Origin: Aestuariispira insulae
GTDB taxonomy: Bacteria; Pseudomonadota; Alphaproteobacteria; UBA8366; Aestuariispiraceae
Assembly: GCF_003385955.1 (NCBI RefSeq)
Contig: NZ_QRDW01000011.1
Location: forward strand, 62,001-126,000
Length of the DNA stretch: 64,000 nt
Direction of reading: 5' to 3'
A program made the position numbers and the translations under genes. Each line of letters begins with the position of its first letter. Positions within the stretch are counted from its first letter, which is position 1. Below the pieces are notes generated by a model. The model did no database searches. It was given only the letters and a program-made list of their open reading frames with translations, and was not told the origin of the DNA. Below are positions 3,034-50,287 of this stretch, in pieces.

Positions 3034-3079
3034 AATGGATCGAACAACAGATAAATTCACTTTGGAGCAGGGGAAAACA

Positions 3080-4654: not shown

Positions 4655-4666
4655 ATTGGGGGGAAG

Positions 4667-4700: not shown

Positions 4701-4712
4701 TAACAGGGGCCG

Positions 4713-10930: not shown

Positions 10931-11631
10931 CGGGTTCAATCGGTCAATGGTACTTGCAACTGCGATCTCGTTGGCAGGCTCTGCAAGCCCGCCCCGAGAT
11001 TGCCCTGCTGGCGGTGGTTCCTATCGAGGCGCCGGGACCGCCAGAGGGGCAGTTGCTGCCGGAAGAACAGGACCGGCGGGATCGCTATCGCTTTGACCGG
11101 GACCGGAATGCCTATGCCCATGGCCGTCTGCTGGTCCGCTGGTTATTGATGGGTGATGGAGAAACCCGGTCCTTTTCCGTTGGTGAGAATGGCAAACCTT
11201 TTCTGCCAGGCAGTGCAGAATTCAATATTTCCCACGGGGCCGGACTGGTTGCGGTGCTGTTCAGTCGCGCTGGCGCGGTGGGGGTGGATGTTGAGGCGCT
11301 CGCCAAGATGAAACGGCATGAAAATCTCCATGATATGGTCTGCCACCCCAATGAGCGGCAATGGATTGAAGAACAGGGGGCGGATAAGGGCAGGGAAGCC
11401 TTCCTGAAATGCTGGACCCGCAAGGAAGCACTGCTGAAAGCGACCGGACAGGGCATCTTAAATGATCTGCCTTCCCTGAATACCTGCCTTGATGATGATA
11501 TGCCGGACACCCATCTGGCAAGCGGGCATCGGTTGCGGGATATGGCGTTGCCCTTTGATGGGGTTGGCTGCGCCATCGCCATTCCGGAGGGTGTCCGCGA
11601 TGTTGAACTGGCCTGCCTGGATCTTGACTAG
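10927..11631 (+). CDS. Sfp-type 4'-phosphopantetheinyl transferase
   Basis: A 234-residue protein that converts apo carrier domains to the holo form by adding phosphopantetheine from CoA. The Sfp-family motifs are visible: GKPFLPGSAEFNISHGAG, the magnesium site GVDVE (about residue 120) and the WTRKEALLKATG helix (about 165). The ATG at 10927 is chosen because it overlaps the thioesterase stop (ATGA) and gives a normal N terminus; the frame opens upstream at 10885. The megasynthases at 11660-43855 carry nine carrier domains that need this activation. It ends 28 bases from the stop of the convergent gene. Confidence 0.92.
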   Translation: MTGSIGQWYLQLRSRWQALQARPEIALLAVVPIEAPGPPEGQLLPEEQDRRDRYRFDRDRNAYAHGRLLVRWLLMGDGETRSFSVGENGKPFLPGSAEFNISHGAGLVAVLFSRAGAVGVDVEALAKMKRHENLHDMVCHPNERQWIEEQGADKGREAFLKCWTRKEALLKATGQGILNDLPSLNTCLDDDMPDTHLASGHRLRDMALPFDGVGCAIAIPEGVRDVELACLDLD

Positions 11632-11653: not shown

Positions 11654-11674
11654 GCCCGGTCAGGCTGACCGGGC
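11654..11674. terminator. Perfect 9-bp hairpin between convergent genes (possible bidirectional terminator)
   Basis: GCCCGGTCA at 11654-11662 pairs exactly with 11666-11674 around a 3-base loop. It spans the stop of the large synthase gene and follows the transferase gene by 22 bases. Neither side has a T-run, so intrinsic termination is uncertain; it could instead be an mRNA 3'-end stabiliser. Confidence 0.35.
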
Positions 11675-14600
11675 AATCTCCACCTGTTCAATCATCTGAG
11701 CGATGCGCCCGATTTGCGGCATGGTCATGATGGAGTAATGATCCGCCGCCATTACATGCGCGTCAAAAATACCGGTCAGTTTGGCGCGCCATAACTGTAG
11801 GGCGGTTTCCATCTTGATCGGCGTGGGAGCCATGCCGCTGGCCTTTTCCGCGGCCAGGAAGACCGTTGCCCTGGTCCGGTTCAGCGTGGAAAGCTGGTGG
11901 CCGGTCATGCTGGCGATATTGGCCTTGCAGCAACGGATGAGGGCTTCCGCATACCGGGCAATCCCGTCCGGCAATCCGGCCTTGGATAGATCCGCCAGTG
12001 TTTCCAGACTGCCTGCGGCTGGCCACCTCTGGGATAATTCCCGAAGGAAAACGGTCTCAATTTCCCGGTCGGTCATCAGTTCCATTGGTACCTGTTGGCC
12101 GGGGGCGGGTGGATCGATCAACGTGATTGCCGCCGCCGGGGGAGCACCTTTTTCCAGGAGAGCTGCCATTTCCTGGGCAATCCAGGCACCAAAGGACCAG
12201 CCGATCAGATGCCATTGGTAGTCCGCTGCAGGAAATTGATCCTCCAGGGCCTCACGATAGAGCCTTGCGCGTTCCGGGATTGATAACGGATGTTCCTGGT
12301 CACGTCGCAATCCCGGATCTGCAATCACACAGACATGACAATGGCCGCCAAGGCGCCCTGCCAGTTCACGATAGGCTTCCACATCACCGCCAACGGGGTG
12401 AATGAGGCAGACAGCCTGGTTGCTGTGGCCTCGTTGCCAGACATCAATGTCAATGGTTGGCAGGGTCGGATCAGCTGTATTCTCCGCTTCCAGATTGCTG
12501 TCCGCCATATTCCCGGTTGCCTGTTCCAGGAACCAATTGATGGTCGCATCCTGGGGAATCTCGGAAAGTTGCAGTTCCGCCCCACCCTGTTTTTCAAGAT
12601 AGGCGACCACCTCCAACATCGTCAGTGAATCCGCACCCAAGTCATAGAGAAGCGCTTCGCTGGCAAGCGTATCCAAACCAAGTTCCTCGCAGAGCAAATC
12701 GCGTAAACCCTGTTCCAGGGAGGGCTGATGACTGCCTTCGGACGTTTGGGTCTCCTGTTTCAATGAGAGTTCCAACAGCGTTTCATTTGCTGTGGAATTG
12801 GATTGGTAGAAATAACTGCTTTCTTCCAGGTCGCAGACATTGATGGCGATCTGGGCTGCGTCCATGGTCATGGCCTGATCAAAACAGAAAACTGCTTCGT
12901 CATTGCCAAGACCCACGGACAGATGGTCCTGATGACGTTTGTCCGGGCGCCTGACATTGACCGCCATGCCACTTTCCCGCCAGGCATCCCAATTCAAACT
13001 GACTCGCCGACAATGGGGATGGTCCGGATGGCGGATATGGGCAAATCCATCCATCAATGCATTGGTTGCTGCATAATCCATATGACCTGCCCCGCCGAAA
13101 TGTGCGGTCATGGAGGAACAATAGACCGCCCAGTCCGGTTTCAACTGGGCAATTAGTTTTTCCATATGAGCCAGTCCAGCCAGTTTAGGGGCACAGGCGA
13201 TCCGCATGGCTTCAGGATCACGACCCGATATCAGGGCCCCGGCCCCGGCTCCAGCGGCATGGATGATGCCGGCCAATCGTTTCCCGCCTAAGGCCTGCCG
13301 AATGGCCGGTAGCTGATCATCCAACCCGATGTCGCCGGTAATGACTGTGATCCGGTCGCTCCAATCCGCGAGATCCGGATGCAGCTCAGGCCGCCGGGAT
13401 AGAATTAGGATCCCGTCAGCGCCTTGGTTCAACAGATGGCGTGCCAATGTCCGGCCGATGCCGCCATTGCCACCAAGGATCAGCCAGTTGTCCGATATAT
13501 GAAGCGCGCGGTTATTCTGCTCAACCTTGGTGAGGGTGCGTTCAAACCAACGGCCGTCGCGATACATCAGGCATCCGCTGCGGTGGGCAAGGCCGTCTAA
13601 TAGATCGGGTAGCAAGGATGCCAGGGCCCTTTCAGACATGGCGGGCAGGTCCAGCCAGTTGGCCGCGATACCATATTCCTGAGGGATTACCTGCACCGGC
13701 CCGGCCAGCAGCCAGGGAAGCGGTTTGGCAATGGGGCCGGCCTGACGGTGCGCATCCTGACTCAGGAAAGATATTTTCGCAGGCTTTAACCCGGATTGCA
13801 GCAGGGCCGAAGGCATATCCAGGCTGGTGAGCATCCCCTCAGACATGGTTGCGGACGGCTGCAGTGTTGTGGGCAGGAGATTTAGACAGTGGAACCCGTC
13901 GGACAGGCAATCTGTTAACTGTCTCCAATGGGCCGGGTCGGCAGGATTGAGCGAATAATGGTCTTCCCGTATGAACTGGAAACCATCGCCCGGGCTCACA
14001 AACATCAGTTTATCAATGGGACCGGCCAGTGATTGTTGGATGGACGCGCGGGCCTCCTCCGGGCAAAGAATCATCCATGTTCCGGGTTTCGCAAGCGGAA
14101 GGGATGAGCTGTCAGCTAACGGCATCCATTTCGGGCGGTAGAACCATTGATCCTTTGGCAGGCGTTTCGGACATTCTGCGGTTGCATCCAGGCTGCGGTT
14201 GTCGTTGAAATGATAGCGCGCCAGGTCAAAGGGATAGGGGGCAAATCCATCGGGCGCCTGTGCCGGTTGAACCGGCCAATCAATGGGGGCGCCATCGATC
14301 CAGGCCTCAATCAGATGACCTGTGGACGCATTCGTTGCCATCAAGGCGGCCTCGGTATCCGAGGCTTTTTTTTGGGAAATCCGCACCGGTTCTATCTCGG
14401 ATAATTGCCGGATAAGATCGTCCAGGCTGCTCACCTTAATCGCAGCGCGCCAATCATGATGTATCCGCCCGGACTGGAAATGACGCAACAAGGCAGGCAG
14501 GTTCTCCGGATGTTGGACGAGATAAGTGCTTATCTGCCCGACAAGGACGTCAAATGCAGGCTTGCTATGGGCGGAGATGGGCAGGACCGCGATCGGCTCT

Positions 14601-17600
14601 GCAAACCCATTATTATCCGTTGTTCGTCCCGGATGGGATAGGATGACATGGGCATTGGTACCGCCAATACCGAAACTGCTGACGGCGGCAATGCGCGGAC
14701 GGTCGTCCGGCCAGGGGGTAACGGAAGCGGACACGTAAAAGCAGGTCTCTTCCAGGCCCAGCTCTGGATTGGCGCGGTTGAAGCCCAGATTGGCGGGGAT
14801 CACCGCCTGTTCGAGGGCGATGGCAGCCCGGATGAACCCGGCAAGGCCCGCACCTGCGCCCAAATGCCCGATCTGGCTCTTGAGGGAAGAAAGCGCGCAG
14901 CTTTTTTCCCGACCGCCACCATAGGCCCTGGCCAATGCATTCACCTCGATCGGGTCTCCCAGATGGGTACCGGTACCATGGCATTCCACATAGCCGATGT
15001 CTGCGCCGGACAGCCCGGCCCGGGCCAGGCTGTCCCGGATCACCTCATATTGGCCCTGGGCCAATGGTGCGGTGTAGCTCATTTTTGCACCGCCATCGTT
15101 ATTGAGGGCCGAGGCTTTCAAAACCGCATGAATATGATCGCCGTCCCGGCGTGCTTGATCCAGCGGTTTCAAAACCACAGCCAGCGCGCCACTGGCCCCG
15201 ATGGTGCCGCTGGCATCCGCGTCAAAGGGCCTGCATTTTCCATCCCTGGAAAAAATATGCTGGGCTTTGTAGGCATAGCCCTCTTCCAGGCTGGGATCGA
15301 TCAGGACGCCTGCGGCCAGCATGATATCCGCATCACCCTGGCGCAGCATGCCGGCGGCCATATGCACCCCGATCAGGGAGCTTCCGCAGGCGGCCTGCAG
15401 GGTGATGGCAGGACCTTTGAGATTGAGATGATAGGCAGCCTTGGTCGCCAGGAAATCCTTGTCATGGTGCAGGGCCATTTGAAAGCGGTCCGGTCGTTTG
15501 TCGGCCGGGGTTTGATCAAGATAATCCTGGAAATAGGTGTTTTCCCCGCAACTGGCGATCAGGCCGATCCGTGGAGCACGCCTGGCCTCCGGGACAATAC
15601 CGGCCGCATGAAGCGCCTGAACACAGATCATCAGCATATGCCGCTGCTGCGGGTCCATGAGCCGGGCTTCCTGGAGGCTCAGGCCGAAATAGGCAGGATC
15701 GAAATCGAGAGGCCCCTTCAGCAGGCTGCTGGCACGAACATAGCCCTCGTCATGGGAACCGAATTCATCAATCCCGGTGCCACCCTCACAGATCATTTCT
15801 TTGAATGCGGAAAGATCGGCGGCGCCCGGCAGGTTGGCGGCCATACCGACAACGGCAATATCCTGGCTCATTTTGGCGGAAGTGTTGATCTGGTTGGCGG
15901 GCCTGGATTCCCGACCACCGGAAAGGTGGTGGGCTAACTGATCGATGGTGACATGGGCAAAGAGATCCGCCATCTGGATGGATAAGTCATATTGTGCCCG
16001 ACAATGATTCCGGAACCGCATGAGATCCAGGCTGCTGGCCCCGGCGTCGAAGAAGGTGACACCGGGCTGGATGACATGACCGGTCACCTGCTTGAAGGCT
16101 TCTGCCAGTTTTCTTTCGGTTGCGGTGGTTGGCCTGCTAGCGGTGTTGTTGGGATCGGTGGTGAGAGATATCCAGGCATGCTGGTGCAGCCCCCGGCGAT
16201 CGATCTTACCGCTTGGGGTGCGGGGCCAGCTGGTTACCTGCCGCCAGTCCCGGATTTTTATATAATTAGGCAGCCATTCCCTGAGATGGGCATTCAAGGT
16301 TTCAGGGCAAAGCGGCTCCCGGATCTGTAGATAGATCATGAGTGATCCCTGTTCGAGATCCGCGACCGCATTTTCAACCGCCCCATGCCGTATCACGGCC
16401 GCTTCGACCTGGCCAAGTTCGATCCTGTGGCCATCCAGTTTTATTTGCTGGTCGCCGCGTCCCTGATAGATCAGGTCGCCGGTCTCTGACAGGCAGGCCA
16501 GATCTCCGGTCCGATAGTAAGTCCGGCCATCTGGTTCGGCGGAAAAGAACTTTTGCTGATTGGAGGAGGCGTCGCCGATATAGCAGGGGGCAACCATCGG
16601 TCCGGCGACCACAAGATGCCCGGTCATGCCTTTGGGCAGGCCCCTGTCCTGGTCATCCAGGATTTTAAATTCCGCATTGCTGACTGGTCGGCCGATGGGC
16701 ACATGCACCGGCCAATGTCGGCTATCTCCTTCCAACAAGGTGCCGCAAATGACATGGGTCTCGGTTGGACCATAATGGTTGGCAAGGGAAAGGCCCGGAA
16801 GATTGGCGGCCCAGTCCCGGATGGCCCGGGTTACGAACAATTGTTCTCCAGCCGAGATGACCTGTCGCAGGCTAGCGGGATACCGCCCGCTGGCAAGACC
16901 GGTTTCGGCCAGCATCTGTAATGCCACATAGGGCATGAAAATCCGCTCAATCCGCTTTTCATCCATATAGGAGAGAAGCCGCTCCAGATCCTGGCGCCAT
17001 CCGGGTTCGATCAGGTGGAAACACCCGCCGGTGCATAGGGTGGAGAAGATTTCCTGGAAGGAGACATCAAAGGATAGTTTGGAAAATTGCAGGGTTGCCT
17101 TGCGCCCGGCTATCCCGCCATGCCGCAATTGCCAGGCCATCAGGTTGCACAGGGTCTGCCCAGGAACATCAACCCCCTTAGGACGGCCGGTCGAACCGGA
17201 GGTGAAGAGGGTGTATAATGGCCGTCTGCCGTTGGAAGAGACCTGATTCCTCCACCTATCCGGTAGGCGCGGGGTGGTTTCCAAGTCGGAAATCTGCACC
17301 GGGATCAACGGACAGTCAGGCAACTGTTCCGGCGCCGCGTCAGCAGAGGAACCGTCAAACAAGATTGCTGCCGGGCTGGCCTGATCCAGGACATCTGTGA
17401 TCAGCGTGTCGGGATATCCCGGATCAAGCGGCAAAGCCGTCAAGCCGGCCTTGGCCAAGGCCAGCAGCGAAACAATATGAGCCGGCGATGTTTCCATCTT
17501 CAACGCGACCCGTGTTGTCTCGTTGTGATCATCGGCGGGCTGGATTTTTTCCATCAACAGATGCGCCAGATGGTCCGAAAGGTGATCCAGATCCCGGTAG

Positions 17601-20600
17601 GTGAAGGTCAGATCCCCCGCAACCAACGCCGGGGCATACGGTGTGGCCGAAGCCTGGAATTGGAACCAGTCAGCGGGATTTTGGAAGGCTGCCGGATCAA
17701 TAGGGCCGGTGACGCCGTCTGCAGGTTGGTTCCGGTAGGGGGAGGCCAATTGCGATAGGCTCATGCTCCCCCCCTGGATCAGTTCCTCCAGGGTTTTCTG
17801 GAACAGATCGGCCATTTTTTCGGCCGCATTGTCCGGGAAGGCACTGTCACGATATTCCCAAAGGAAACGATAGCCGTCCTGCTGGGACAATGCGGTCAAA
17901 GTGAGGGCGCATTTTGCCGTTGCGCTTTTCAATGGCTGGAAGGACGCGGCTGTTTCGCCCAGGCGCAACTGCCGGTCATCGGTATTTTCCAGGACGAACA
18001 TATAGTCAAACGGGCTGCCGTTTTCATCCAGCAACTCGGGGCAATCCTGCAGCAAATCCTCCAACAGCAGATCCTGCAAAGGTGTGCAGGCCCGGATCTG
18101 CTCCAGTTGTTGGGTCAATTGTTGGTCCAGGGTCTCTTCCTCGTCGACCGTCATCAGCAATAATTGGGTATTGCTCAGCATGCCGACAGTGCCTTCAAAC
18201 ATGCCTAGGGGGCGGTTTGCGACGGGGGTGGCGATCTTGACCATTTTTTGTCCGCGCAAGGTATGAAGGCACCAGGCATAAAGACTGGTAAACAGTTGAA
18301 ACGGAGTCAGGCCGCGCCACCGGCAAAAAGCGGCAATGCGGCTATTGTCCGCGTCAGTAATCCGGCAGGCCAGAATGGTTGCCTGTTCCCCGATATCTCC
18401 GGATGCAGGACAGGCAATCCGGTCCGTGTCCTGCAGGTCCTCCAGCCGTGACAGGACATGATCCCGCGCGCCATGGCGCAGGTCATCATAGGCCGGGCTG
18501 CTCCGCCATTTCCGCTGCCAATCTGCCTGGGCGGCGAGGCTGGCGGCAGGACGCGCGTCCTTTTGATGCCCGTCATAGGCCTGGGTCAGATGCCGGAACA
18601 GGATATTGATGGAATGACCATCAATAAGGATATGGTGAAAATGCAGGATCAATATGCCGCCATCCGAAGAAAAGGGCAGCCAATAGACCTGGAACAATCT
18701 GTCCTGTGCTAGGTCGAACGGTGTTTCGTTCAGCAGCCGGGCAAATCCGGTCCAGCTTTTTTCGTCATATTGCCCGGGATTAAACACATGGAGGCTGGTG
18801 TCTCTATCGTGATCGTGCGTCTGCATGATGCGGCCCGAAATATCGGCAAAACGGCTGCGGATTTCCGGATGTTGAAGGAAGAGTTGGTCAACAGCTTCTG
18901 CCAATCGATGTTGGTCGATAGCGCCGTGGATGCGAAAGGCCAATGTTTCATTATAGGCGCATGATTTTGGATGTCGGGCCTGATAGAGCCAGAGGCGCGT
19001 TTGCTCGGAATTCACCTCCCACTGATCCGGGGCGATGGGTTTGTCCGGGTTCAAGAGGGGATAACCGCCGTTATCAGCACTCGTTCCCCGGGAAAGGGAT
19101 GCTTCAATTTGCCGGAAGGTCGCGGTCAGGATGAAACTGGCGGAAAGCTGGATCGTCCAGTGTTCCTGAATGGCATGGCTGATCCGCATGGCGCTCAAGG
19201 AATCACCACCCGCCTGTGGCAGGGTTTGGTCGGGGTGGCTGGGCCGCGTGCCCAAAATCGTGCCGGCCAAATCCAGCAGTTTAGAAAGGTCTTCTGAGGT
19301 TTCCGGTTCACATTCGAAGCTTTGTTCTATCCAGACAGGATGATTCCCTTTCAGTAAGGCCCGGCCATCGATCTTGCCATTGGCGGTCAGTGGCATATTC
19401 TGCAGTCGGTGAAGCCGATGCGGGATCATATAATCCGGCAACCCTGTCGAGAGATGTTGGCTGATCTCTGTTGGCGTTACCCCGTCCCTGGCGACTATGA
19501 ATGCCAGCAATAGATGTTGCCCGGAGGGGGCTTTGCGGGTGCCGACAAAGGCCTCCAGGATTTCCGGATGGCGGAGCAAGGCCTGCTCGATCTCGCCCGG
19601 CTCGATCCGGAAACCTCGGATTTTGACCTGGCGGTCCGCCCGGCCCCGATAGGTGATCAGTCCATTTTCATCCTGCTGAACCAGATCGCCGGTGTGATAA
19701 AAAAGCTGGCCCCTGTTTCCGGTGGCAATCGGCTTGAAACTATCCGCGGTTTTTTCCGGAAGATTGTGATAGCCGTCGGCCAGCGCCGTCCCACCAATCA
19801 GCAGCTGCGCGATTTCACCCGGCAATGCCTTTTTGCCATCCGGGCGGATCAGATAGGTCTCGGTTCCGGCGATCGCCCGTCCGATCGGGACCGACGCGCC
19901 CTGATGATCCCGGGGAACTGGCTGTATGGTTGAGAAAGTTGCGCATTCAGTCGGGCCATAGACGTTATGGATCACGCAATTGCTTTGCGGATTGGCCTCA
20001 TACCAGGACCGGACGGTGGCAGCGTTGATTGCCTCCCCCCCGATCAGGAGATCCTGAAGCCCGGCAAAGCAACCTGGCTGCTGCTGAGCGATCAGATTGA
20101 ACAGAGCCACGGTCATGAACATGGCCTCGACCTGCCGTGTCTCCAGAACGGTTTGCAGGCGTGCAGGATAGTTCACATCCTCCTGGTCGATGACGATGAT
20201 TGTGCCGCCGGTCAGCAAAGGCACCCAAATGTCGAAGCTAAGCGCATCAAAGGCAGGGTTGGAAATATTGCCGTAGCGGCGGCCAACCGGCATGGGAATG
20301 AAGTGCGGGGGCCAGGACAGTCTGGCAATGGCGCGGTGAGGCACCCGCACCCCTTTCGGCCGGCCGGTTGTACCGGATGTGTAGAAAATGCAGGCGAGAT
20401 CCCTGGCCCCGGTTTGGGTTTGGAGTGGGGTCTCCTCCGGTTGGTGAAGCAGGTCCGCGACAGGCATGGGCGCCAGGCATGGCAGATCCAGATTGTCGAT
20501 CCCATCGTGCGTGATGACGGCTGCGCAACCGGCATCGCTCAGGATATAGTCCCGCCGCTCTGCCGGGCTGTTCCGGTCCAGTGGCACCATATGGCATCCC

Positions 20601-20857
20601 GCCCGAACGACGGCCAGCATGGAAATCACGAGATCGGCGGAACGCGGCAGCATCAGCGCCACACCATGTCCGGGGAGAAGTCCGGCGGCCTGCAGGGATT
20701 GTGCCTGTCGGCGGCTGGCGACTTCCAATTCACGATAGGTGAGACGGATGTCTCCTGCTTCCAGTGCGATCAATTCAGGCCAGGTTCCGGCGGTTTTTAG
20801 AAATCCCGCCACAAGGTTTGACTGGCCGGGATAGGATGCTGTTTCTTGTTCAGTCAT
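11660..20857 (-). CDS. Hybrid NRPS-PKS: A-T-C-A-T-KS-KR-ACP-TE, AT-less PKS module
   Basis: A 3065-residue megasynthase. The first A domain (about 12-500; SGTTGRPKG) loads without a C domain; its hand-read code DAFFLGVTF resembles Ile/Val codes. T is at GGDSL (about 545). C (about 610-1050) has HHILIDG. The second A (about 1060-1560) has code DVQFIAHVI, close to Pro codes. T is at GASSL (about 1605). KS (about 1660-2075) has active Cys in QAACGSS and His in VECHGTGT and SQIGHLGAG. Only about 135 residues separate KS from the YPFDLARY post-KS linker, too few for an acyltransferase. KR (about 2230-2650) has GGNGGIG and catalytic Tyr/Asn in DYAATN; the LDD stereo motif is absent. ACP is at GADSL (about 2742) and TE (about 2810-3060) has GWSFGAW and His in ADHYS. 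It starts 12 bases after the previous gene, so it is in the same operon. Having its own loading and release domains, it may act alone. Confidence 0.93.
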   Translation of the reverse strand: MTEQETASYPGQSNLVAGFLKTAGTWPELIALEAGDIRLTYRELEVASRRQAQSLQAAGLLPGHGVALMLPRSADLVISMLAVVRAGCHMVPLDRNSPAERRDYILSDAGCAAVITHDGIDNLDLPCLAPMPVADLLHQPEETPLQTQTGARDLACIFYTSGTTGRPKGVRVPHRAIARLSWPPHFIPMPVGRRYGNISNPAFDALSFDIWVPLLTGGTIIVIDQEDVNYPARLQTVLETRQVEAMFMTVALFNLIAQQQPGCFAGLQDLLIGGEAINAATVRSWYEANPQSNCVIHNVYGPTECATFSTIQPVPRDHQGASVPIGRAIAGTETYLIRPDGKKALPGEIAQLLIGGTALADGYHNLPEKTADSFKPIATGNRGQLFYHTGDLVQQDENGLITYRGRADRQVKIRGFRIEPGEIEQALLRHPEILEAFVGTRKAPSGQHLLLAFIVARDGVTPTEISQHLSTGLPDYMIPHRLHRLQNMPLTANGKIDGRALLKGNHPVWIEQSFECEPETSEDLSKLLDLAGTILGTRPSHPDQTLPQAGGDSLSAMRISHAIQEHWTIQLSASFILTATFRQIEASLSRGTSADNGGYPLLNPDKPIAPDQWEVNSEQTRLWLYQARHPKSCAYNETLAFRIHGAIDQHRLAEAVDQLFLQHPEIRSRFADISGRIMQTHDHDRDTSLHVFNPGQYDEKSWTGFARLLNETPFDLAQDRLFQVYWLPFSSDGGILILHFHHILIDGHSINILFRHLTQAYDGHQKDARPAASLAAQADWQRKWRSSPAYDDLRHGARDHVLSRLEDLQDTDRIACPASGDIGEQATILACRITDADNSRIAAFCRWRGLTPFQLFTSLYAWCLHTLRGQKMVKIATPVANRPLGMFEGTVGMLSNTQLLLMTVDEEETLDQQLTQQLEQIRACTPLQDLLLEDLLQDCPELLDENGSPFDYMFVLENTDDRQLRLGETAASFQPLKSATAKCALTLTALSQQDGYRFLWEYRDSAFPDNAAEKMADLFQKTLEELIQGGSMSLSQLASPYRNQPADGVTGPIDPAAFQNPADWFQFQASATPYAPALVAGDLTFTYRDLDHLSDHLAHLLMEKIQPADDHNETTRVALKMETSPAHIVSLLALAKAGLTALPLDPGYPDTLITDVLDQASPAAILFDGSSADAAPEQLPDCPLIPVQISDLETTPRLPDRWRNQVSSNGRRPLYTLFTSGSTGRPKGVDVPGQTLCNLMAWQLRHGGIAGRKATLQFSKLSFDVSFQEIFSTLCTGGCFHLIEPGWRQDLERLLSYMDEKRIERIFMPYVALQMLAETGLASGRYPASLRQVISAGEQLFVTRAIRDWAANLPGLSLANHYGPTETHVICGTLLEGDSRHWPVHVPIGRPVSNAEFKILDDQDRGLPKGMTGHLVVAGPMVAPCYIGDASSNQQKFFSAEPDGRTYYRTGDLACLSETGDLIYQGRGDQQIKLDGHRIELGQVEAAVIRHGAVENAVADLEQGSLMIYLQIREPLCPETLNAHLREWLPNYIKIRDWRQVTSWPRTPSGKIDRRGLHQHAWISLTTDPNNTASRPTTATERKLAEAFKQVTGHVIQPGVTFFDAGASSLDLMRFRNHCRAQYDLSIQMADLFAHVTIDQLAHHLSGGRESRPANQINTSAKMSQDIAVVGMAANLPGAADLSAFKEMICEGGTGIDEFGSHDEGYVRASSLLKGPLDFDPAYFGLSLQEARLMDPQQRHMLMICVQALHAAGIVPEARRAPRIGLIASCGENTYFQDYLDQTPADKRPDRFQMALHHDKDFLATKAAYHLNLKGPAITLQAACGSSLIGVHMAAGMLRQGDADIMLAAGVLIDPSLEEGYAYKAQHIFSRDGKCRPFDADASGTIGASGALAVVLKPLDQARRDGDHIHAVLKASALNNDGGAKMSYTAPLAQGQYEVIRDSLARAGLSGADIGYVECHGTGTHLGDPIEVNALARAYGGGREKSCALSSLKSQIGHLGAGAGLAGFIRAAIALEQAVIPANLGFNRANPELGLEETCFYVSASVTPWPDDRPRIAAVSSFGIGGTNAHVILSHPGRTTDNNGFAEPIAVLPISAHSKPAFDVLVGQISTYLVQHPENLPALLRHFQSGRIHHDWRAAIKVSSLDDLIRQLSEIEPVRISQKKASDTEAALMATNASTGHLIEAWIDGAPIDWPVQPAQAPDGFAPYPFDLARYHFNDNRSLDATAECPKRLPKDQWFYRPKWMPLADSSSLPLAKPGTWMILCPEEARASIQQSLAGPIDKLMFVSPGDGFQFIREDHYSLNPADPAHWRQLTDCLSDGFHCLNLLPTTLQPSATMSEGMLTSLDMPSALLQSGLKPAKISFLSQDAHRQAGPIAKPLPWLLAGPVQVIPQEYGIAANWLDLPAMSERALASLLPDLLDGLAHRSGCLMYRDGRWFERTLTKVEQNNRALHISDNWLILGGNGGIGRTLARHLLNQGADGILILSRRPELHPDLADWSDRITVITGDIGLDDQLPAIRQALGGKRLAGIIHAAGAGAGALISGRDPEAMRIACAPKLAGLAHMEKLIAQLKPDWAVYCSSMTAHFGGAGHMDYAATNALMDGFAHIRHPDHPHCRRVSLNWDAWRESGMAVNVRRPDKRHQDHLSVGLGNDEAVFCFDQAMTMDAAQIAINVCDLEESSYFYQSNSTANETLLELSLKQETQTSEGSHQPSLEQGLRDLLCEELGLDTLASEALLYDLGADSLTMLEVVAYLEKQGGAELQLSEIPQDATINWFLEQATGNMADSNLEAENTADPTLPTIDIDVWQRGHSNQAVCLIHPVGGDVEAYRELAGRLGGHCHVCVIADPGLRRDQEHPLSIPERARLYREALEDQFPAADYQWHLIGWSFGAWIAQEMAALLEKGAPPAAAITLIDPPAPGQQVPMELMTDREIETVFLRELSQRWPAAGSLETLADLSKAGLPDGIARYAEALIRCCKANIASMTGHQLSTLNRTRATVFLAAEKASGMAPTPIKMETALQLWRAKLTGIFDAHVMAADHYSIMTMPQIGRIAQMIEQVEIARSA

Positions 20858-20869
20858 CTGACAGGTGTC

Positions 20870-35427: not shown

Positions 35428-35482
35428 TATCTTAAGGCCTTGTTATGCTGTGCTCTTTGGCGTCTGGGCGAAAGGATATCGC

Positions 35483-38400
35483 TCAGGACGCTGCCTCTGC
35501 GTCAATCTCACCGAAAATGTGATCCAGCAGGCCCCGGATGGTGGGGCGCTCGAAAAAGCTCCGGAGCGGGATTTCTGCCCCCAGCAGATCGCGGATCTGG
35601 GCGGTCATGCGGGCCGCCAGCAGCGAATGCCCCCCGCAATCGAAGAAACTGTCATCCAGGCCGATTTGATCGAGATCCAGCAAACCGCACCAAATCTCGG
35701 CAACCGCTATTTCAAGCGCGGTTTCCGGACGGGCTGTGATTTCTTCCCGATAACCGGGGGCTGGCAGGGCAGAGCGGTCCAGCTTGCCGTTTCGGGTCAG
35801 CGGGATGCTCTCCAGGCGGATGAAATGGCCGGGGACCATGTAGGGCGGCAGGCATTGTTCCAAATGCTGGCGCAGTGCCTGGCCGTCGGGAACCATCGCT
35901 TGGTCCTCGGGCAGGAAATAGGCAATCAGCTGCTGGTTGCCGGAGGCATCGGGATGGGCGGTGGCAATGGCCTGCCGGATATCGTCGTGCTGTTCCAGCT
36001 GATACTCGATCTCTCCGGCTTCAATCCGATACCCCCGGATTTTGAGCTGGTGATCCTCGCGGCCCCGATAACGGAACGATCCATCGGGGTTGCCGATGGC
36101 CCGGTCCCCGGTGCGGTAAATCCTCAAACCACCCCTCTGCTGAAAGGCCTGGTCGGTTAGATCGGGCCGGTTGTGATACCCGATTGCAAGACCCGGTCCG
36201 GCAATACAGAGCTCGCCTTCCACGCCGGCGGGCAGGATATTGCCGTAATCATCAAGAATGTGGACGGCATTGCCGTATTGCGCCGATCCGATGGAAACGA
36301 TTGCGCCCTCTTCCTCACTAACGAGGCTTTCCGCTGTGACCTCATGCCAGCAGCAATAGATCGTGGCTTCCGTCGGGCCGTAATGATTGATCAGCCGGGC
36401 AAAAGGCAATTGCTGGTGGAATATGCGGGCCAGCGCCACCGGAAGGGCCTCACCACCGCTGTCGACCTGTTGCAGGCTGGTACAGGTTCCGGCGGATCCA
36501 TCCTCCAGGAAATGGCGCAAGAGCGAAGGCACAAACTGGCAATGGGTGATGCTTTCTCCTCGGATCAAGTCCGATAGTCTGCCGGGGTCCAGCAGATTGG
36601 CCGTTTCGGCAATCACAAGGGATGCCCCTTCCGTCAAGGGCCAGAAGATTTCCCGGAAGGATATGTCGAAACTGAGAGAGGTGGTGCACAACACCTTGTC
36701 TGTTTCGTTAAGCGGCTCGCCGGTTGCCAGCCCCTGGACATAATTACTCAAGGCGCTGTTGGGGATCACCACGCCTTTCGGTGTGCCGGTGGAGCCGGAG
36801 GTGTAGATGATATAGGCGGGATCATCCGTTGCGGCGGCGCGCGGTGAAAAGCTTTCCCGGCCGCTGAGATCATGGGCGGAAAGATCGGTGGTTTGGGCAG
36901 GTTGCCCTGCCAGGGCGTTTGCACGGTTGGCGGTTTCGACAGATAGCTGATCGCAGATGATTTGGTCCGGGCGGCTGTCGGCCAAGGCCTGGGCGAGGCG
37001 CTGTTCAGGATGGGCCGGGTCCAGCGGAATGAAACAGCCGCCCGCTTTCATCACGGCGAGCAGCGCGACCGGGATCCAGCGGGTTCTCGGCAGGCAGATC
37101 GCCGCTTTGCTCCTGCTGCCAAAACCGCTTTTCTTTAGCAGGCCTGCCAGCTGGTCGGAATAGCGTTCCAACTCCCCGTAGGTAAAGCAGCCGTCCGGGG
37201 CGGATATCGCAGTTTTATCAGGTGTCAGTCCGGCTTGTTCACTGACCCTGTTGAGGATGGGAATGGCGGGATGCTGAGGTTGTGCCAGCGTGTTTTCCGG
37301 CAAGCGAATCCGACAGGCAGGGGCCTCGGTCGGTTTGTCCAGCTCCCGTGTCATCTCCTGCAGCCGTTCCAAGAGACTATTCATCACCAGATCGGCATCA
37401 ATGCCGGAACGGGCCTGCAAGGTGACCCGGAAACCGTCGCGGCTGTCATCGACAGCCAGCATCAGGGGGTAATTGCTGCGTTCCTCAGCGCCTAAGAACC
37501 GGGAACCGGGCAGATTACGGATATCTCGATTGGTATCAGTCTGTTCCATCCTGTCGGAATGGCGGTAATTCAGCAGGCTGGCAAAAAGCGGTAATGGCGC
37601 CCGGATCTCGCTGCATTGCTGCGCCTGGGCGAGGGATGCCGCCTCGTGCTGCAATAGCTGCGAAAGCTGATCCTGGACCTCGGTGAGCATCCTTGCTGCC
37701 GGTGTTTCATCCAGACGGACCCGGAAGGGCAAGGTGTTGATGAACGGGCCCAGGATACGCTCGGCCCCGGCCATGCCCTGAAGGCGGCCAAACAGCACCG
37801 TGCCGAAAACAACATCCAACTGGCCCGATGTCTGGGCCATCACCTGGGCCCAGGCCATATGGAAGAGGGCCGCTGGGCTGGCCCGGTAGCTGCGGCAGGT
37901 TTGATAGATCCGGCCGGCCAGTTCGTCCTCCAGATGGAGGCGGCGTTCCGTGACCGAGCCGCCGTCATCATAGATATCCGACTGGCCGAAGGGGATGGTC
38001 GGGGTTTCAAAATCCGAAAGCAGGGTCTCGAAATACCGGCGATGGCGTTCTTTCTCTGCCGGGTCGGCCGCCAGGGCGACATAGTTGCGGAACGGCAGGG
38101 CGGGCGGCAGCCGATCAAAATCACCTTCCAGATCCGTCAGGATTTCCGACTGCATCTGTTTTAGCGAACTGTTGTCGTCAATCAGGTGATGGAACTGCAT
38201 CAATGCCAGCCATCCATCGCCTTCCGGGGCCAGATAGATCCGCAACAGCGGTGCCTGTGTCAGATCCATGAGATTCTGCCGACTGCCATAATGGTCGATC
38301 AGATAGGCGCGCGGATCATCTGTTGCAGGCGGAATAGAAACGGTTTCAACCGAAAGCGTCACTTGGCGCAGGACGACCTGAATTGGCATGTGCAATCCCT

Positions 38401-41400
38401 GCCAGATGAAGGCGGTGCGCAAGATGTCGTGACGCTGGATGACCTTTTGCAAGGCGGTCAGATACCGGTCGAGATCCTGCCTGCTGTCAAACCGGTTGAG
38501 ATGCCAGAGAAGATAAGGGTCGCTGTCCCGGCTGATTTGATGATGGAAAAGGATACCTTCCTGTAAGGGCGTCAGGGGATAAATATCGGCAACATTCTCC
38601 AATCCGCCGGGCACCATTTGACCGATCTGGTCCAGATCGGCCTGTTCGAGAAACACCAGGTCGAGGTCTTTTGGTGAAATCACACCGGTGGGGGCAATGT
38701 GCTGGCCGGGTTCCGGATCCGATGCCCCGGTCAGCGGGCGCAAATGCAGGGCCTGTTTTTCCAGAACAGGATGGGTGAGCAGGCTTGCCGCATCCACCTG
38801 GTATCCTGCTTTCCGGAGGCTGGCCTGAACCCGGACCGCCAACAGGGAGTGGCCGCCCAATTCAAAGAAATGATCGGTCCGGCCGATCGCTTCCCGTTCC
38901 AGGATGGTCGACCAGACGGAAGCCAGGATCTCTTCTTCCTTGGTCTGCGGCGGCTGGTGATCGGTTTGGATATTGCGCGGCATTTCCGGCGACGGCAGGG
39001 CCTTTCGATCCAATTTGCCATTGGTGGTGAGCGGGATCTGATCAATCTCAATGAAGGCCGCGGGGATCATGTAATCGGGCAGGAAGGCGGCCAGATGCTG
39101 TTCCAGTTCGGATCGTTCGGGAAATGATGCCCCCTCCGGGATGATGCAATAGGCCACCAGCATCCTGGTGCCATCGGGCAAATCATGGGTCGAGGTGACA
39201 CAGTTTGCCACATCGGGATGGGTGGAAACCCGGTTTTCGATCTCCCCAAGCTCGATGCGGTATCCCCTGATTTTGACCTGATCGTCGTTGCGGCCCAGAT
39301 ATTCAATCGTGCCATCTGCCAGATAGCGCGCCAGATCCCCGGTCTTATAAAGCCGTTCTTGTGGGTGATGGGGATTGGCGATGAAGCGGGCCTGGTTCAG
39401 GTCCGGCCGGTTGAGATACCCCCGGGCGACACCGGCACCGCCGATATGGATTTCCCCGGCCCGTCCGGGAAGCACCGGTTTCAGATCTTCGTCCAGGATA
39501 TAGAAAGACAAGTCATCCAGGGGACGGCCTATCGGGCTGCCGGTGGTTTTTTGACGGCAGTATTCGGGGCTGAGTGCCAGGAATGTCGCATGCACCGTGA
39601 TCTCGGTGATGCCATACATATTCACCAAGCGGCAATTCCGGTTGGCTGCCTCACCATACCAGGGGACCAGCATGCCGGCATCCAGGCCTTCGCCGCCGAA
39701 AATCACTTCGCGCAGGCTGTGTTCGGCACCGGCCTCCCTCTGCGCTGCCATGAAGGCGCGGAAGGCGCTGGGGGTCTGATTGAGGATGCTGACCTTTTCC
39801 TGGCAGCAAAGCCTGTAGAACCGGTCGGGGGAGCGGGTTGTTTCTTTAGGGACAATGATCAGCGTTCCCCCATGGCCAACGGCGCCGAAAATCTCCCAGA
39901 CGGAAAAATCGAACGCATAGGAATGGAACAGAGTCCAGACATCATCGGGCCCAAAATCGAAATGCGCCCGGCAGCTGTCAAACAATCGGGCGGCCTGGCG
40001 ATGCTCAATCATCACGCCTTTGGGTTTCCCCGTGGAGCCCGACGTGTAGATGATATAGGCGAGGCTGTCGGGGCGGATATCGACCGGTGCCAAGCTGTCG
40101 AGGGGCTGGACCGCGCCCTCCCGGCGGGTATCAGCGATATCCAGAAGGGTTAGGATGCTGTTTCCAGCGGCAATCTGGTCCAATTGCTTTCGGCCGGTGG
40201 CATCGCACAAAACGGCGGCTGGTTTGGCGTCATCCAGTATGAAGGCCATCCGATGCTGCGGGATTGCCGGATCAATCGGCAGATAGGCCGCGCCGGATTT
40301 GAGGATGGCAAGCATCGCGATGATGAGATCAAACGACCGATCCATGCACAGGCCGACCTTGTCCCCGGGGCCGATGTCCCGGTCCTGCAATGCTTTTGCC
40401 AACTGGGATGCCTGGGTTTCCAGGCTTTGATAATCGAGGGTGCCGCCGTCAAGGCGAAGAGCGGTGCGGTCCGGCTGTAGCTTTGCCATCTCTTCAAAGG
40501 GCTGGTGCAGCAGTTTGCCCTCGGGATGGGTGGCTTTCGCGGCCCAGTTCTGGATCATCTCTTGGATCTCATCCGGCGTTGGTGATTGCAGGCTGGCGAC
40601 CGGTTGGGCCGGGTCCCGGAGACAGCGATCCAGCAGCTTTAGATACCGGTCCAACATGCCGCGCATGGTCTCTTCCCGGAAGAGATCTGTTGCATAATTC
40701 CACAGGAATGTGATGGTGCTGGCATCCCCCTGGCTTTCCTGGCGGGCAGCGGCACGGGGCAGCATGACAATCTCGAAATCAAATTTGCAGGAATTGTTGC
40801 TGTAGGCCTCAAACAGAGAAAGGTCGAAATCATCACGCTTCAATTCCGGCAGGTCGGAATTATGGAAGCTGAACCCCACTTGGAACATTGGGTTGCGGTC
40901 GGGGGTACGGTCCGGTTGCAGGGTGTGGACAATCTCTTCAAAGGGCAGTTCTTCGTTGTCATAGGCGTCGGCAACAGTGCCCACAACCCGGGACAGTAGA
41001 TCCCGGAAACTCGCCGCGCCGGGTAGGTCGGAACGGATCACGACACTGTTGACAAACATGCCGATCATTTCTTCCGAAGCGCTGCTCTTGCGGTTGGCAA
41101 CAGCGGATCCGATCAGGAAATCCTGTTGCCCCGCCTGTTGGGCCAGCAGTATCTGAAACGCCGCCATCAAGGCTGAATAGAGAGTCACGTTTTCGCGTGC
41201 ACAGAAGTCGCTCAGCCTGTGGAACAGATCCACGGGCATTTCATGGCGGATCTGCCGCCCGTTGAAGGACATGCGCGCGGGCCGCGGGAAATCGGTCAGC
41301 ATATCCAGGCGGGTTGGCGCGCCCTCCAGTTTGGTGCACCAGAAATCCAATTGCCGCTGATAGGTTGCTTTTGCCGCATCACTTTTTTGCCAGGCGACAT

Positions 41401-43855
41401 AATGCCGGTATTGGGCCGGTGGCGTGACAAGGGCGCGGTCGGCAGGCGCGCCGTCACCGATCCGGTCATAGATGGCCAGCATCTCTTTCAGGAACAGGTT
41501 GGCGCTCCAGCCATCATGGACGAAATGATGTTCGATATGCAGCAGGGCATGATCGGTGGCAGTCAACCGGAATAAAACCCACCGCACCAGGGGCAGCTGA
41601 TCCAGGGTGAAGGGTTTTGATACTTCTTCGCTTACGGCGGCCTGCAATGCGGCCTCCATGTCACCGCCATTTTGCTCAAGGGGCCTTTCGGTCAGACTGG
41701 CCGGTGCGCTGGCATGCACTTTTTGAAACGGATTGCCATCCTCATCCATATGAAAGCTGGTGCGGAAAATATCATGGCGGGCCACAACTTCATCCAGGGC
41801 CTGCTGTAACCGGTTCTTGTCCAGATTACCGCGGATCCGGATCACGCATTGCGCGTTATAGGCCAGGGAATTCGGAGCCAGTTGTTCCAGCAGCCAAACG
41901 CCACTTTGCTGGCGTGACAGGGGATAACAGTCATGTTCCTTGAAAGCATCAAACTCGATTAACTCCCGAAGGTGGGCGCTCTCGACAGTGCTGTGTTTTT
42001 CGATCTTTTGGGTGATGTCTCCGACAGTGATCCCCTGGAAGATTTCACGCAATTGCAGGACAGGGCCGAAGCGGTTCCTGATCCTGGTTAGGAACTGAAC
42101 CGCGTCCAGGGAATTGCCGCCAAGGCTGGCGAGCGTGTCATTGCGCCCGACCTGGTCAAGACCGGTGACCGTACGCCAGATGTCCGCGATTTCACTTTCC
42201 AAACCGGCGTTGGGCACCAGGAAATCGTTGGTGCCAAAATCGACCCTGGCAGGTTCAGGCAGGCGTTTCCGATCTATCTTGCCACTGGGGCTGGTCGGAA
42301 GCCTGTCCATGGCGATAAAGGCCGACGGTATCATGAAGTCTGGCAGGGTTTTTCGAAGGATGGCGGTGAGACTCTCCCTGTCTGCGTTATGACCGATTGC
42401 AGGCGTGAAGTGACAGATCAGGCGGTTTTCACCTGATGCACTGCGAAGGGCCGTAACGACAGCGGCGCGGACCTGTTCCAGGGCCAGGACGGTATTTTCA
42501 ACTTCGCTGCATTCAACCCGGAACCCGCGGATTTTGACCTGATCATCATCCCGGCCGAGATATTCCAGCCGGCCATTCTCGCCCAGGCGGCCAAGATCGC
42601 CACTGTCATAATACCGGCCCTGATGCCCCGGAATTGTATGGAACCGATCCGCGGTCAGGTCCGGGCGGTTCAGATACCCGCGCGCCAATCCGGCGCCGCC
42701 AATCCAGATCCGGCCCTGCTGTCCTTTAGAGACCGGAACCAAGTGATCATCCAGAAGCAGGATATCGATACCGGCCATAGGATAACCGATCGGCACGGGA
42801 CCGTTCTGATCTTCATCCGGGCCCAACTGGATGGCGGTGGCACAGACAGTGGATTCCGTCGGGCCATAGGCGTTGATATAGGTCCGTCCCTCTGACCAGC
42901 GCCGAACCATCGGCCAACTGGGGGCTTCCCCGGCGGTGACGAGTACCTTGACCGTTTCGAAGCCATGGCAGTCATCCAGCCGCGCAAGCACGGCGGGCGG
43001 CAGGGTGACGTGAGAGATCCGGAACGCTGTCAGAGCCTCAATCAGTGCTTCGCCGGCAAGAATTTGGTCAGGGTCTTCAAAACAGAGTGCAGCCCCGCTG
43101 GCCAGGGTCACGAATATTTCGGAAACCGAGGCGTCGAAACTGAAAGGCGCGAACTGGAGAACGCGCGCCTCTTTCGTCATGTGAAAGAGATCGGCTTGGG
43201 CGCGCGCCAGATTGGCCAGGCCGCCATGTTCGATCATCACGCCCTTGGGCTGGCCGGTGGAACCGGACGTATAAATCACATATGCGAGATCACTGGCGGA
43301 AGGGTCGTGCCATTCCCCTGACGGTTCCTGCGCGATATCATCACCGGTCTTTTCCAGGGCAGCCAAGGTTTTGACCGGGATCGACTGGCCAGCCTGATCA
43401 ATCAGGTTGGTCACGTGGTCCAGGTTTTCGTCGTCACACAAGATCATTTTCGGCCCGCTGTCTCGCAGCATGTAACAGAGGCGGTCCACCGGATAATCAG
43501 GAGACAGCGGGATATAGGCGGCACCGGCGCGCATCACCGCCAGCGATGCCATGACCATATCCGGCGATCGGTTCATGCAGATGGCGACAAAATCACCTTG
43601 TGCGATCTGATGTTGATGAATGGCCGCCGCGATCAGGGCGCTGCTGTGGATCAGCGTCCTGTAGCTGATCTCGCGGTTGCGGCAGACCAAAGCAGGCCTG
43701 TCCGGAGCGCTGGCGGCTATCTCCGCTATATGGCTTAAGACAGTCTCAGGCTGCCCGCCGGGGGCATCGCCGTCTTTCAATTGTGAAGAAGATATAAGGT
43801 CCTGAGCAATAATGACATTTTGCGCATCGGTACCGTCTGAAAATTTATTCTGCAT
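35483..43855 (-). CDS. NRPS initiation protein: A-T-C-A-T-C(dual C/E type)-A-T
   Basis: A 2790-residue synthetase and the first gene of the operon. A (about 40-540; SGSTGQPKG) has no C domain before it, so it loads the first residue with a free amino end; hand-read code DASTVAAVC fits aromatic, Tyr-type codes. T at GGNSL (about 585). C (about 640-1080) has HHFVHDGWS. The second A (about 1110-1610) has code DFWNIGMVH, the well-known Thr code. T at GGHSL (about 1665). The second C (about 1755-2190) starts YPLTPLQEGILFHHQ and carries HHQISRDSD, close to the extended His motif of dual condensation/epimerisation domains; its HHLIDDN keeps HHxxxD. The third A (about 2200-2690) has code DIRQDGHIY, which I cannot assign. 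T at GGHSL (about 2743). The C terminus is short and acidic. Confidence 0.94.
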   Translation of the reverse strand: MQNKFSDGTDAQNVIIAQDLISSSQLKDGDAPGGQPETVLSHIAEIAASAPDRPALVCRNREISYRTLIHSSALIAAAIHQHQIAQGDFVAICMNRSPDMVMASLAVMRAGAAYIPLSPDYPVDRLCYMLRDSGPKMILCDDENLDHVTNLIDQAGQSIPVKTLAALEKTGDDIAQEPSGEWHDPSASDLAYVIYTSGSTGQPKGVMIEHGGLANLARAQADLFHMTKEARVLQFAPFSFDASVSEIFVTLASGAALCFEDPDQILAGEALIEALTAFRISHVTLPPAVLARLDDCHGFETVKVLVTAGEAPSWPMVRRWSEGRTYINAYGPTESTVCATAIQLGPDEDQNGPVPIGYPMAGIDILLLDDHLVPVSKGQQGRIWIGGAGLARGYLNRPDLTADRFHTIPGHQGRYYDSGDLGRLGENGRLEYLGRDDDQVKIRGFRVECSEVENTVLALEQVRAAVVTALRSASGENRLICHFTPAIGHNADRESLTAILRKTLPDFMIPSAFIAMDRLPTSPSGKIDRKRLPEPARVDFGTNDFLVPNAGLESEIADIWRTVTGLDQVGRNDTLASLGGNSLDAVQFLTRIRNRFGPVLQLREIFQGITVGDITQKIEKHSTVESAHLRELIEFDAFKEHDCYPLSRQQSGVWLLEQLAPNSLAYNAQCVIRIRGNLDKNRLQQALDEVVARHDIFRTSFHMDEDGNPFQKVHASAPASLTERPLEQNGGDMEAALQAAVSEEVSKPFTLDQLPLVRWVLFRLTATDHALLHIEHHFVHDGWSANLFLKEMLAIYDRIGDGAPADRALVTPPAQYRHYVAWQKSDAAKATYQRQLDFWCTKLEGAPTRLDMLTDFPRPARMSFNGRQIRHEMPVDLFHRLSDFCARENVTLYSALMAAFQILLAQQAGQQDFLIGSAVANRKSSASEEMIGMFVNSVVIRSDLPGAASFRDLLSRVVGTVADAYDNEELPFEEIVHTLQPDRTPDRNPMFQVGFSFHNSDLPELKRDDFDLSLFEAYSNNSCKFDFEIVMLPRAAARQESQGDASTITFLWNYATDLFREETMRGMLDRYLKLLDRCLRDPAQPVASLQSPTPDEIQEMIQNWAAKATHPEGKLLHQPFEEMAKLQPDRTALRLDGGTLDYQSLETQASQLAKALQDRDIGPGDKVGLCMDRSFDLIIAMLAILKSGAAYLPIDPAIPQHRMAFILDDAKPAAVLCDATGRKQLDQIAAGNSILTLLDIADTRREGAVQPLDSLAPVDIRPDSLAYIIYTSGSTGKPKGVMIEHRQAARLFDSCRAHFDFGPDDVWTLFHSYAFDFSVWEIFGAVGHGGTLIIVPKETTRSPDRFYRLCCQEKVSILNQTPSAFRAFMAAQREAGAEHSLREVIFGGEGLDAGMLVPWYGEAANRNCRLVNMYGITEITVHATFLALSPEYCRQKTTGSPIGRPLDDLSFYILDEDLKPVLPGRAGEIHIGGAGVARGYLNRPDLNQARFIANPHHPQERLYKTGDLARYLADGTIEYLGRNDDQVKIRGYRIELGEIENRVSTHPDVANCVTSTHDLPDGTRMLVAYCIIPEGASFPERSELEQHLAAFLPDYMIPAAFIEIDQIPLTTNGKLDRKALPSPEMPRNIQTDHQPPQTKEEEILASVWSTILEREAIGRTDHFFELGGHSLLAVRVQASLRKAGYQVDAASLLTHPVLEKQALHLRPLTGASDPEPGQHIAPTGVISPKDLDLVFLEQADLDQIGQMVPGGLENVADIYPLTPLQEGILFHHQISRDSDPYLLWHLNRFDSRQDLDRYLTALQKVIQRHDILRTAFIWQGLHMPIQVVLRQVTLSVETVSIPPATDDPRAYLIDHYGSRQNLMDLTQAPLLRIYLAPEGDGWLALMQFHHLIDDNSSLKQMQSEILTDLEGDFDRLPPALPFRNYVALAADPAEKERHRRYFETLLSDFETPTIPFGQSDIYDDGGSVTERRLHLEDELAGRIYQTCRSYRASPAALFHMAWAQVMAQTSGQLDVVFGTVLFGRLQGMAGAERILGPFINTLPFRVRLDETPAARMLTEVQDQLSQLLQHEAASLAQAQQCSEIRAPLPLFASLLNYRHSDRMEQTDTNRDIRNLPGSRFLGAEERSNYPLMLAVDDSRDGFRVTLQARSGIDADLVMNSLLERLQEMTRELDKPTEAPACRIRLPENTLAQPQHPAIPILNRVSEQAGLTPDKTAISAPDGCFTYGELERYSDQLAGLLKKSGFGSRSKAAICLPRTRWIPVALLAVMKAGGCFIPLDPAHPEQRLAQALADSRPDQIICDQLSVETANRANALAGQPAQTTDLSAHDLSGRESFSPRAAATDDPAYIIYTSGSTGTPKGVVIPNSALSNYVQGLATGEPLNETDKVLCTTSLSFDISFREIFWPLTEGASLVIAETANLLDPGRLSDLIRGESITHCQFVPSLLRHFLEDGSAGTCTSLQQVDSGGEALPVALARIFHQQLPFARLINHYGPTEATIYCCWHEVTAESLVSEEEGAIVSIGSAQYGNAVHILDDYGNILPAGVEGELCIAGPGLAIGYHNRPDLTDQAFQQRGGLRIYRTGDRAIGNPDGSFRYRGREDHQLKIRGYRIEAGEIEYQLEQHDDIRQAIATAHPDASGNQQLIAYFLPEDQAMVPDGQALRQHLEQCLPPYMVPGHFIRLESIPLTRNGKLDRSALPAPGYREEITARPETALEIAVAEIWCGLLDLDQIGLDDSFFDCGGHSLLAARMTAQIRDLLGAEIPLRSFFERPTIRGLLDHIFGEIDAEAAS

Positions 43856-50272: not shown

Positions 50273-50287
50273 CAGATTTGCTCCCGA

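What the first reader, a model, noticed from the sequence alone, without database searches (positions are those of the whole stretch)
11660..43855. Four-gene NRPS/PKS operon with a predicted seven-residue, thiazole-containing peptide
The first three proteins give nine complete signposts of one line: loading A-T, six extension modules and a terminal TE. Hand-read binding-pocket codes are DASTVAAVC (aromatic/Tyr-like), DFWNIGMVH (Thr), DIRQDGHIY (unassigned), DVADIGAID (Arg-like), DVQYIAQVA (Pro-like), DLYNLSLIW (Cys, followed by Cy and Ox) and DAWQYGVVN (Gln/Glu-like, weak). I do not recognise a known compound with the order Tyr-Thr-X-Arg-Pro-thiazole-Gln. The loading module has no starter C domain, so no fatty-acid tail is expected.
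Basis: partly seen in the sequence, partly recalled or inferred. Interest (0 to 1): 0.78.

Follow-up and report, generated by a model that had tools for sequence, protein, structure and literature searches.

The report
Pseudovibriamide-type ureido-peptide gene cluster
The four giant genes and seven helper genes around them are a new copy of a known bacterial recipe (the pseudovibriamide / detoxin family) for a thiazole-containing peptide joined to a small proline-derived tail; relatives of this compound alter motility and protect some bacteria from an antibiotic.

Summary
Four intact reading frames encode a seven-module NRPS ending in a TE, plus a fourth A-T-C-A-T-KS-KR-ACP-TE protein. The interpretation misses the key point. 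Tyr-Thr-X-Arg-Pro-thiazole-Gln is the order of pseudovibriamide A (Pseudovibrio ppp cluster) and, with Phe, of pseudobulbiferamide. The window carries the whole ppp gene set: PPTase, type II TE, MFS, GSCFA protein, SGNH-like protein, PipD-like protein and TauD-type dioxygenase. The first condensation domain has EHHFVHDG, the published signature of urea-forming domains. The C domain after Thr shares HHxIDDN[ST]S with C domains after Thr in two related clusters, which fits dehydration to Dhb. The fourth protein builds a Val/Ile-Pro-beta-hydroxy acid tail, expected to be ester-linked to the heptapeptide, then hydroxylated and acylated. This is a new member of a known kind. Open points are the residue chosen by module 3 (pocket DIRQDGHIYK; Gly code in the homologue, Gly/Ala in known products) and the location beside housekeeping genes in a different lineage.

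The parts
35483..43855 (-). PppA-like NRPS, A(Tyr)-T / C(urea)-A(Thr)-T / C-A(X)-T
   Evidence: 44% identity over 2788 aa to the G176 homologue
41510..41533 (-). EHHFVHDG motif of the module-2 C domain: published signature of ureido-forming C domains
   Evidence: PMC11212132; EHHLVHDG in the homologue
38165..38191 (-). HHLIDDNSS motif of the module-3 C domain (follows the Thr module); HHxIDDN[ST]S also follows each Thr module in G176 and G737; predicted dehydrating C domain
   Evidence: Dhb in known products (PMC10616845; PMC8302735 for chitinimide)
25027..35427 (-). PppB-like NRPS, C-A(Arg)-T / C-A(Pro)-T / Cy-A(Cys)-T-Ox
   Evidence: 46% identity over 3460 aa to the G176 homologue
20870..25030 (-). 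PppC-like NRPS, TubC_N docking-C-A(Gln-like)-T-TE; the TE is expected to release the heptapeptide or transfer it onto the PppD product
   Evidence: 46% identity over 1383 aa to the G176 homologue; GLSFG in the TE, GLSFG/GLSYG in the related PppC proteins
11660..20857 (-). PppD-like hybrid, A(Val/Ile)-T / C-A(Pro)-T / KS-(AT-less)-KR-ACP-TE
   Evidence: no Acyl_transf_1 match in the protein; 41% identity over 3082 aa to the G176 homologue
10163..10930 (+). PppF-like type II thioesterase
   Evidence: 47% to G176 homologue
10885..11631 (+). PppE-like 4'-phosphopantetheinyl transferase
   Evidence: 39% to G176 homologue
44385..45632 (+). PppG-like MFS transporter
   Evidence: 45% to G176 homologue
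45632..46696 (+). GSCFA protein (PipG-like; corresponds to the SGNH-hydrolase-like PppH); Cys47 conserved in all six homologues aligned
   Evidence: PMC12828459
46659..47363 (+). SGNH-like protein (PipF-like); GDSH and D-x-x-H motifs conserved in all six homologues aligned
   Evidence: PMC12828459
47399..48268 (-). PppK/PipE-like TauD-family Fe(II)/2-oxoglutarate dioxygenase, predicted proline hydroxylase; HxD...H residues present
   Evidence: (64% to G176); PMC11796379
48286..48960 (-). PipD-like small protein, third member of the acylation trio (weakest assignment; 36% over 129 aa)
   Evidence: no Pfam family

Best explanation
This is a ppp-type (pseudovibriamide-like) member of the detoxin/rimosamide-like clusters, with two assembly lines that each end in a TE. 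Line 1 (PppA-B-C): Tyr is loaded. The module-2 C domain joins Tyr and Thr head to head through a urea carbonyl, probably from bicarbonate. The module-3 C domain dehydrates Thr to Dhb. Residue X, Arg, Pro, Cys (cyclised by Cy and oxidised to thiazole by Ox) and Gln follow. The predicted core is Tyr-CO-Dhb-X-Arg-Pro-Thz-Gln. Line 2 (PppD): Val/Ile and Pro are joined and extended by one malonyl unit, loaded in trans (probably by FabD, since the module has no AT), then reduced by KR. The PppC TE either hydrolyses the heptapeptide or transfers it to the hydroxyl of the PppD product as an ester. The TauD enzyme hydroxylates the proline and the GSCFA/SGNH/PipD trio acylates it. Shown here: gene set, domain order, motifs, pocket codes and conserved co-occurrence. 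Inferred from characterised homologues: chemistry, ester linkage, timing and activity.
For: Intact genes and domains. Codes give Tyr-Thr-X-Arg-Pro-Cys-Gln and Val/Ile-Pro. Published pseudovibriamide/pseudobulbiferamide order is the same. Published ppp knock-outs cover each accessory gene type found here. Eleven-gene homologue in G176, with each A domain best matching its counterpart except a tie for module 1. EHHXXHDG signature. HHxIDDN after Thr in 4 of 4 cases. Pip gene functions and FabD as trans-AT; FabD with fabG and acpP is present in this genome. Catalytic residues of the TauD, SGNH and GSCFA proteins are kept. As a formula check, calculated masses for the Tyr/Ala compounds, m/z 844.341 and 1156.509, agree with published PA1 844.2 and PB1 1156.3.
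Against: Module-3 pocket DIRQDGHIYK matches no code known to me. The module-3 C domain lacks the K/R of the published CmodAA motif and has DN instead of DG, so dehydration rests on co-occurrence. The PipD assignment is weak. There is no product data for this organism.
Confidence: 0.92

Rival explanations
1. Same cluster, but the module-3 C domain is a dual epimerisation/condensation domain, so residue 2 is D-Thr (still with its hydroxyl) rather than Dhb.
For: The domain starts YPLTPLQEGILFHHQISRDSDPY and looks like the C/E clade; it has A/S where CmodAA domains have K/R.
Against: Pseudobulbiferamide and chitinimide carry Dhb; the HHxIDDN[ST]S variant follows Thr modules in all three clusters; dehydrating domains of the C/E clade are discussed in PMC10880069.
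Confidence: 0.15
2. The two assembly lines release two separate compounds and no ester is formed in this organism.
For: Both lines start with A-T and end in a TE; Pseudovibrio releases PA and PC as well as PB; extended congeners were not detected in Microbulbifer.
Against: In Pseudomonas and Chitinimonas homologues the TE of the NRPS line forms the ester; the hydroxylase and acylation genes are kept here.
Confidence: 0.12
3. A new, unrelated thiazole heptapeptide with a coincidental residue order.
For: The module-3 pocket is unassigned; megasynthase identity to the homologues is only 41-46%.
Against: Coincidence does not explain eleven shared genes, domain order, urea motif and the PppD line.
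Confidence: 0.02

Closest known systems
ppp cluster, pseudovibriamides A-C (Pseudovibrio brasiliensis Ab134; also Pseudomonas)
   Same: pppA-D order, seven modules with TE, AT-less PppD, PPTase, type II TE, transporter, three proteins needed for the extended product, dioxygenase; Tyr starter and Thr, Arg, Pro, Thz, Gln order
   Different: Lies beside housekeeping genes rather than on a plasmid; module-3 pocket unassigned; direct sequence identity not measured because the Pseudovibrio sequence was out of reach
mbp cluster, pseudobulbiferamides (Microbulbifer sp. MKSA007)
   Same: Heptamodular line with Dhb, Gly/Ala, Arg, Pro, Thz, Gln and a urea; mbpD present
   Different: Phe starter instead of Tyr; plasmid-borne; extended product not detected there
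pip cluster, pseudotetraivprolides (Pseudomonas entomophila)
   Same: PppD-like PipC, ester-forming TE, PipE hydroxylase, PipDFG acetylation trio, FabD as trans-AT
   Different: Tetrapeptide line, no urea described
Detoxin/rimosamide clusters (Streptomyces) and chitinimides (Chitinimonas)
   Same: PppD-like tail line with GSCFA, SGNH and TauD genes; chitinimide also has urea, Dhb, Arg and thiazole
   Different: Different length and composition of the N-terminal peptide

Membership tests
ppp-type (pseudovibriamide) cluster | Seven-module NRPS on three proteins, A-T start, TE end | tested here: met
ppp-type (pseudovibriamide) cluster | Specificity order aromatic-Thr-small-Arg-Pro-Cys-Gln | tested here: inconclusive
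   Six of seven fit; module 3 (DIRQDGHIYK) cannot be assigned; the counterpart in G176 has DILQLGLIWK, the Gly code
ppp-type (pseudovibriamide) cluster | Urea-forming C domain in module 2 (EHHXXHDG) | tested here: met
   EHHFVHDG; PMC11212132
ppp-type (pseudovibriamide) cluster | Dehydration of Thr to Dhb by the next C domain | tested here: inconclusive
   HHxIDDN[ST]S shared by C domains after Thr, but CmodAA K/R absent
ppp-type (pseudovibriamide) cluster | pppE-pppK accessory genes | tested here: met
   the PipD-like member by weak similarity only
ppp-type (pseudovibriamide) cluster | Product structure | not testable with these tools
   needs mass spectrometry and NMR
Detoxin/rimosamide-like family | AT-less hybrid A-T-C-A(Pro)-T-KS-KR-ACP-TE | tested here: met
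Detoxin/rimosamide-like family | Conserved TauD-type dioxygenase | tested here: met
   51-64% identity to the dioxygenases of related clusters
Detoxin/rimosamide-like family | Protection of Bacillus cereus against blasticidin S | not testable with these tools
   needs an assay

The most novel reading that the evidence does not exclude
Module 3 activates a residue other than Gly or Ala (pocket DIRQDGHIYK, with Arg239, Asp299 and His322), so the product is a pseudovibriamide with a new third residue, made by a cluster beside housekeeping genes in a lineage not yet known to make these compounds.
Probability: 0.35. Interest if true: 0.4.

Novelty: new member of a known kind. Interest (0 to 1): 0.3.

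Why it matters
It places a compound family that modulates motility and acts as an antibiotic antidote in another bacterial lineage, apparently on the chromosome rather than on a plasmid. It gives comparative sequence for two unsettled points: how a C/E-like domain might dehydrate Thr, and how module 3 selects its residue.

Tried and rejected
Near-identity search of plasmids with the PppC gene: no match. tblastn of plasmids: the best hits are detoxin-type Streptomyces relatives near 40%, so no closely related Pseudovibrio or Microbulbifer plasmid is in that collection. The single named-genome scan, spent early on PppC, returned only four loci. Sampled family, order, class and phylum searches found only G176 and G737 as clear carriers; G176 is probably not Pseudovibrio (61% GC in the fetched stretch). 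The idea that the adjacent oligopeptide ABC transporter belongs to the cluster was tested against G176: transporter operons lie about 13-25 kb from its dioxygenase gene, but at 23-52% identity, which is generic for that broad family, so it was left aside. The guess that the module-3 C domain simply epimerises Thr was kept as a rival. The nearest solved A domain to module 3 did not help to assign its residue.

Full report
What was checked. The four reading frames are real, intact and on the minus strand: 43855-35483, 35427-25027, 25030-20870 and 20857-11660. They are 55 nt apart, overlap by 4 nt and are 12 nt apart, as expected of one transcription unit. Pfam assigns three A, two C and three T domains to the first protein; three C-type (one of them Cy), three A, three T and a nitroreductase-fold oxidase to the second; TubC_N-C-A-T-TE to the third; and A-T-C-A-T-KS-KR-ACP-TE to the fourth. 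The seven C-domain matches of the genome all lie here.

Specificity codes. Aligning all A domains with GrsA gave DASTVAAVCK, DFWNIGMVHK, DIRQDGHIYK, DVADIGAIDK, DVQYIAQVAK, DLYNMSLIWK and DAWQYGVVNK for the first line, and DAFFLGVTFK and DVQFIAHVIK for the fourth protein. Assignments to Tyr, Thr, Arg, Pro, Cys, Gln-like, Val/Ile and Pro rest on established codes recalled from knowledge; no predictor was available.

Identity of the cluster. The order Tyr-Thr-X-Arg-Pro-Thz-Gln is that of pseudovibriamide A. The pseudobulbiferamide paper gives Phe-Dhb-Gly/Ala-Arg-Pro-Thz-Gln with a urea between residues 1 and 2, and states that Tyr replaces Phe in pseudovibriamides (PMC10616845). The ppp cluster has pppA-C for the heptapeptide, an AT-less pppD, a PPTase (pppE), type II TE (pppF), transporter (pppG), three proteins needed for the extended product (pppH-J) and a dioxygenase (pppK) (PMC11796379). 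As a formula check, the Tyr/Ala heptapeptide calculates to m/z 844.341 and its Val, hydroxyl, propionyl ester to 1156.509, against reported 844.2 and 1156.3.

Comparative test. A search of 385 genomes of the same class with the C-terminal 2466 residues of PppD found one other carrier, G176. Its contig holds all eleven genes: PppA 44%, PppB 46%, PppC 46%, PppD 41%, type II TE 47%, PPTase 39%, MFS 45%, GSCFA 51%, SGNH 44%, TauD 64% and the small protein 36% over 129 residues. Eight of nine A domains match their counterpart best, and the module-1 pair ties. The G176 codes read aromatic, Thr, Gly, Arg, Pro, Cys, Gln-like, Val/Ile, Pro. So only module 3 clearly differs in the window. Streptomyces plasmids carry the detoxin-type subset (C-A-T-TE, PppD-like, GSCFA, SGNH, TauD).

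Mechanistic signatures. The module-2 C domain has EHHFVHDG; EHHXXHDG is reported as sufficient and necessary, on present examples, for urea formation (PMC11212132). The module-3 C domain has HHLIDDNSS. In the window, G176 and G737, HHxIDDN[ST]S occurs four times, each time directly after a Thr module, and not in the other C domains listed. Chitinimide, whose cluster also belongs to this family, has two Dhb residues (PMC8302735). This supports dehydration, but the published CmodAA K/R is absent and DG is replaced by DN. Dehydrating members of the C/E clade have been proposed (PMC10880069). I put Dhb at about 0.85.

Tail line. PppD has no AT match. In P. entomophila the homologue PipC is loaded by FabD, the TE of the NRPS line forms the ester, PipE hydroxylates and PipDFG acetylates (PMC12828459). 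The genome here has FabD beside fabG and acpP, and also a second stand-alone acyltransferase elsewhere. GSCFA Cys47, the SGNH serine with its D-x-x-H, and the HxD...H of the dioxygenase are conserved across the homologues aligned.

What is not shown. No product was observed. The Pseudovibrio sequence was not in reach. The third residue is unassigned: the nearest solved A domain is in linear gramicidin synthase subunit A, but the Gln-like module hits the same protein, so this says little. Function in this organism is unknown; homologous compounds promote motility (PMC11796379) and protect Bacillus cereus from blasticidin S (PMC12911931).

Verdict. The finding is real and well read, but it is a new member of a described family rather than an unknown compound. 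Interest is modest and rests on the module-3 pocket, the dehydrating C-domain variant and the new lineage.

Noticed in passing
window 3035-8568 (with 1677-2969 and 8525-9352): An oligopeptide-type ABC transporter operon (solute-binding protein, permease, fused permease-ATPase, ATPase), an M20 peptidase and a GntR-type regulator lie beside the cluster. Detoxin-like compounds are suspected to act on peptide importers, but the G176 neighbourhood gives only generic similarity.
   Followed up: partly
window 48995-51997: A XendoU-family protein (425 aa) next to a PLD-family protein (569 aa): unusual neighbours of the cluster, with no match near the homologous clusters.
   Followed up: partly
window 57737-63542: Obg GTPase, an amino-acid kinase with PUA domain (proB-like), an aldehyde dehydrogenase (proA-like), a nucleotidyltransferase (nadD-like) and a SPOUT methyltransferase follow in order, so the cluster lies beside housekeeping genes, unlike the plasmid-borne ppp and mbp clusters. 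A tRNA-Ser lies at 56472-56561.
   Followed up: no
L037 1468-2454 (G000:C16): A second stand-alone acyltransferase beside an ABC-transporter ATPase; an alternative candidate for loading the AT-less PppD.
   Followed up: no
G001:C1:2328717-2385710 (L013, L014 and others): A genome of the same family holds a different, very large NRPS cluster with twelve module matches.
   Followed up: no
L038-L041 (G737): A chitinimide-like cluster with two successive Thr modules, each followed by an HHIIDDNTS C domain, and two TauD-type dioxygenases in tandem.
   Followed up: partly
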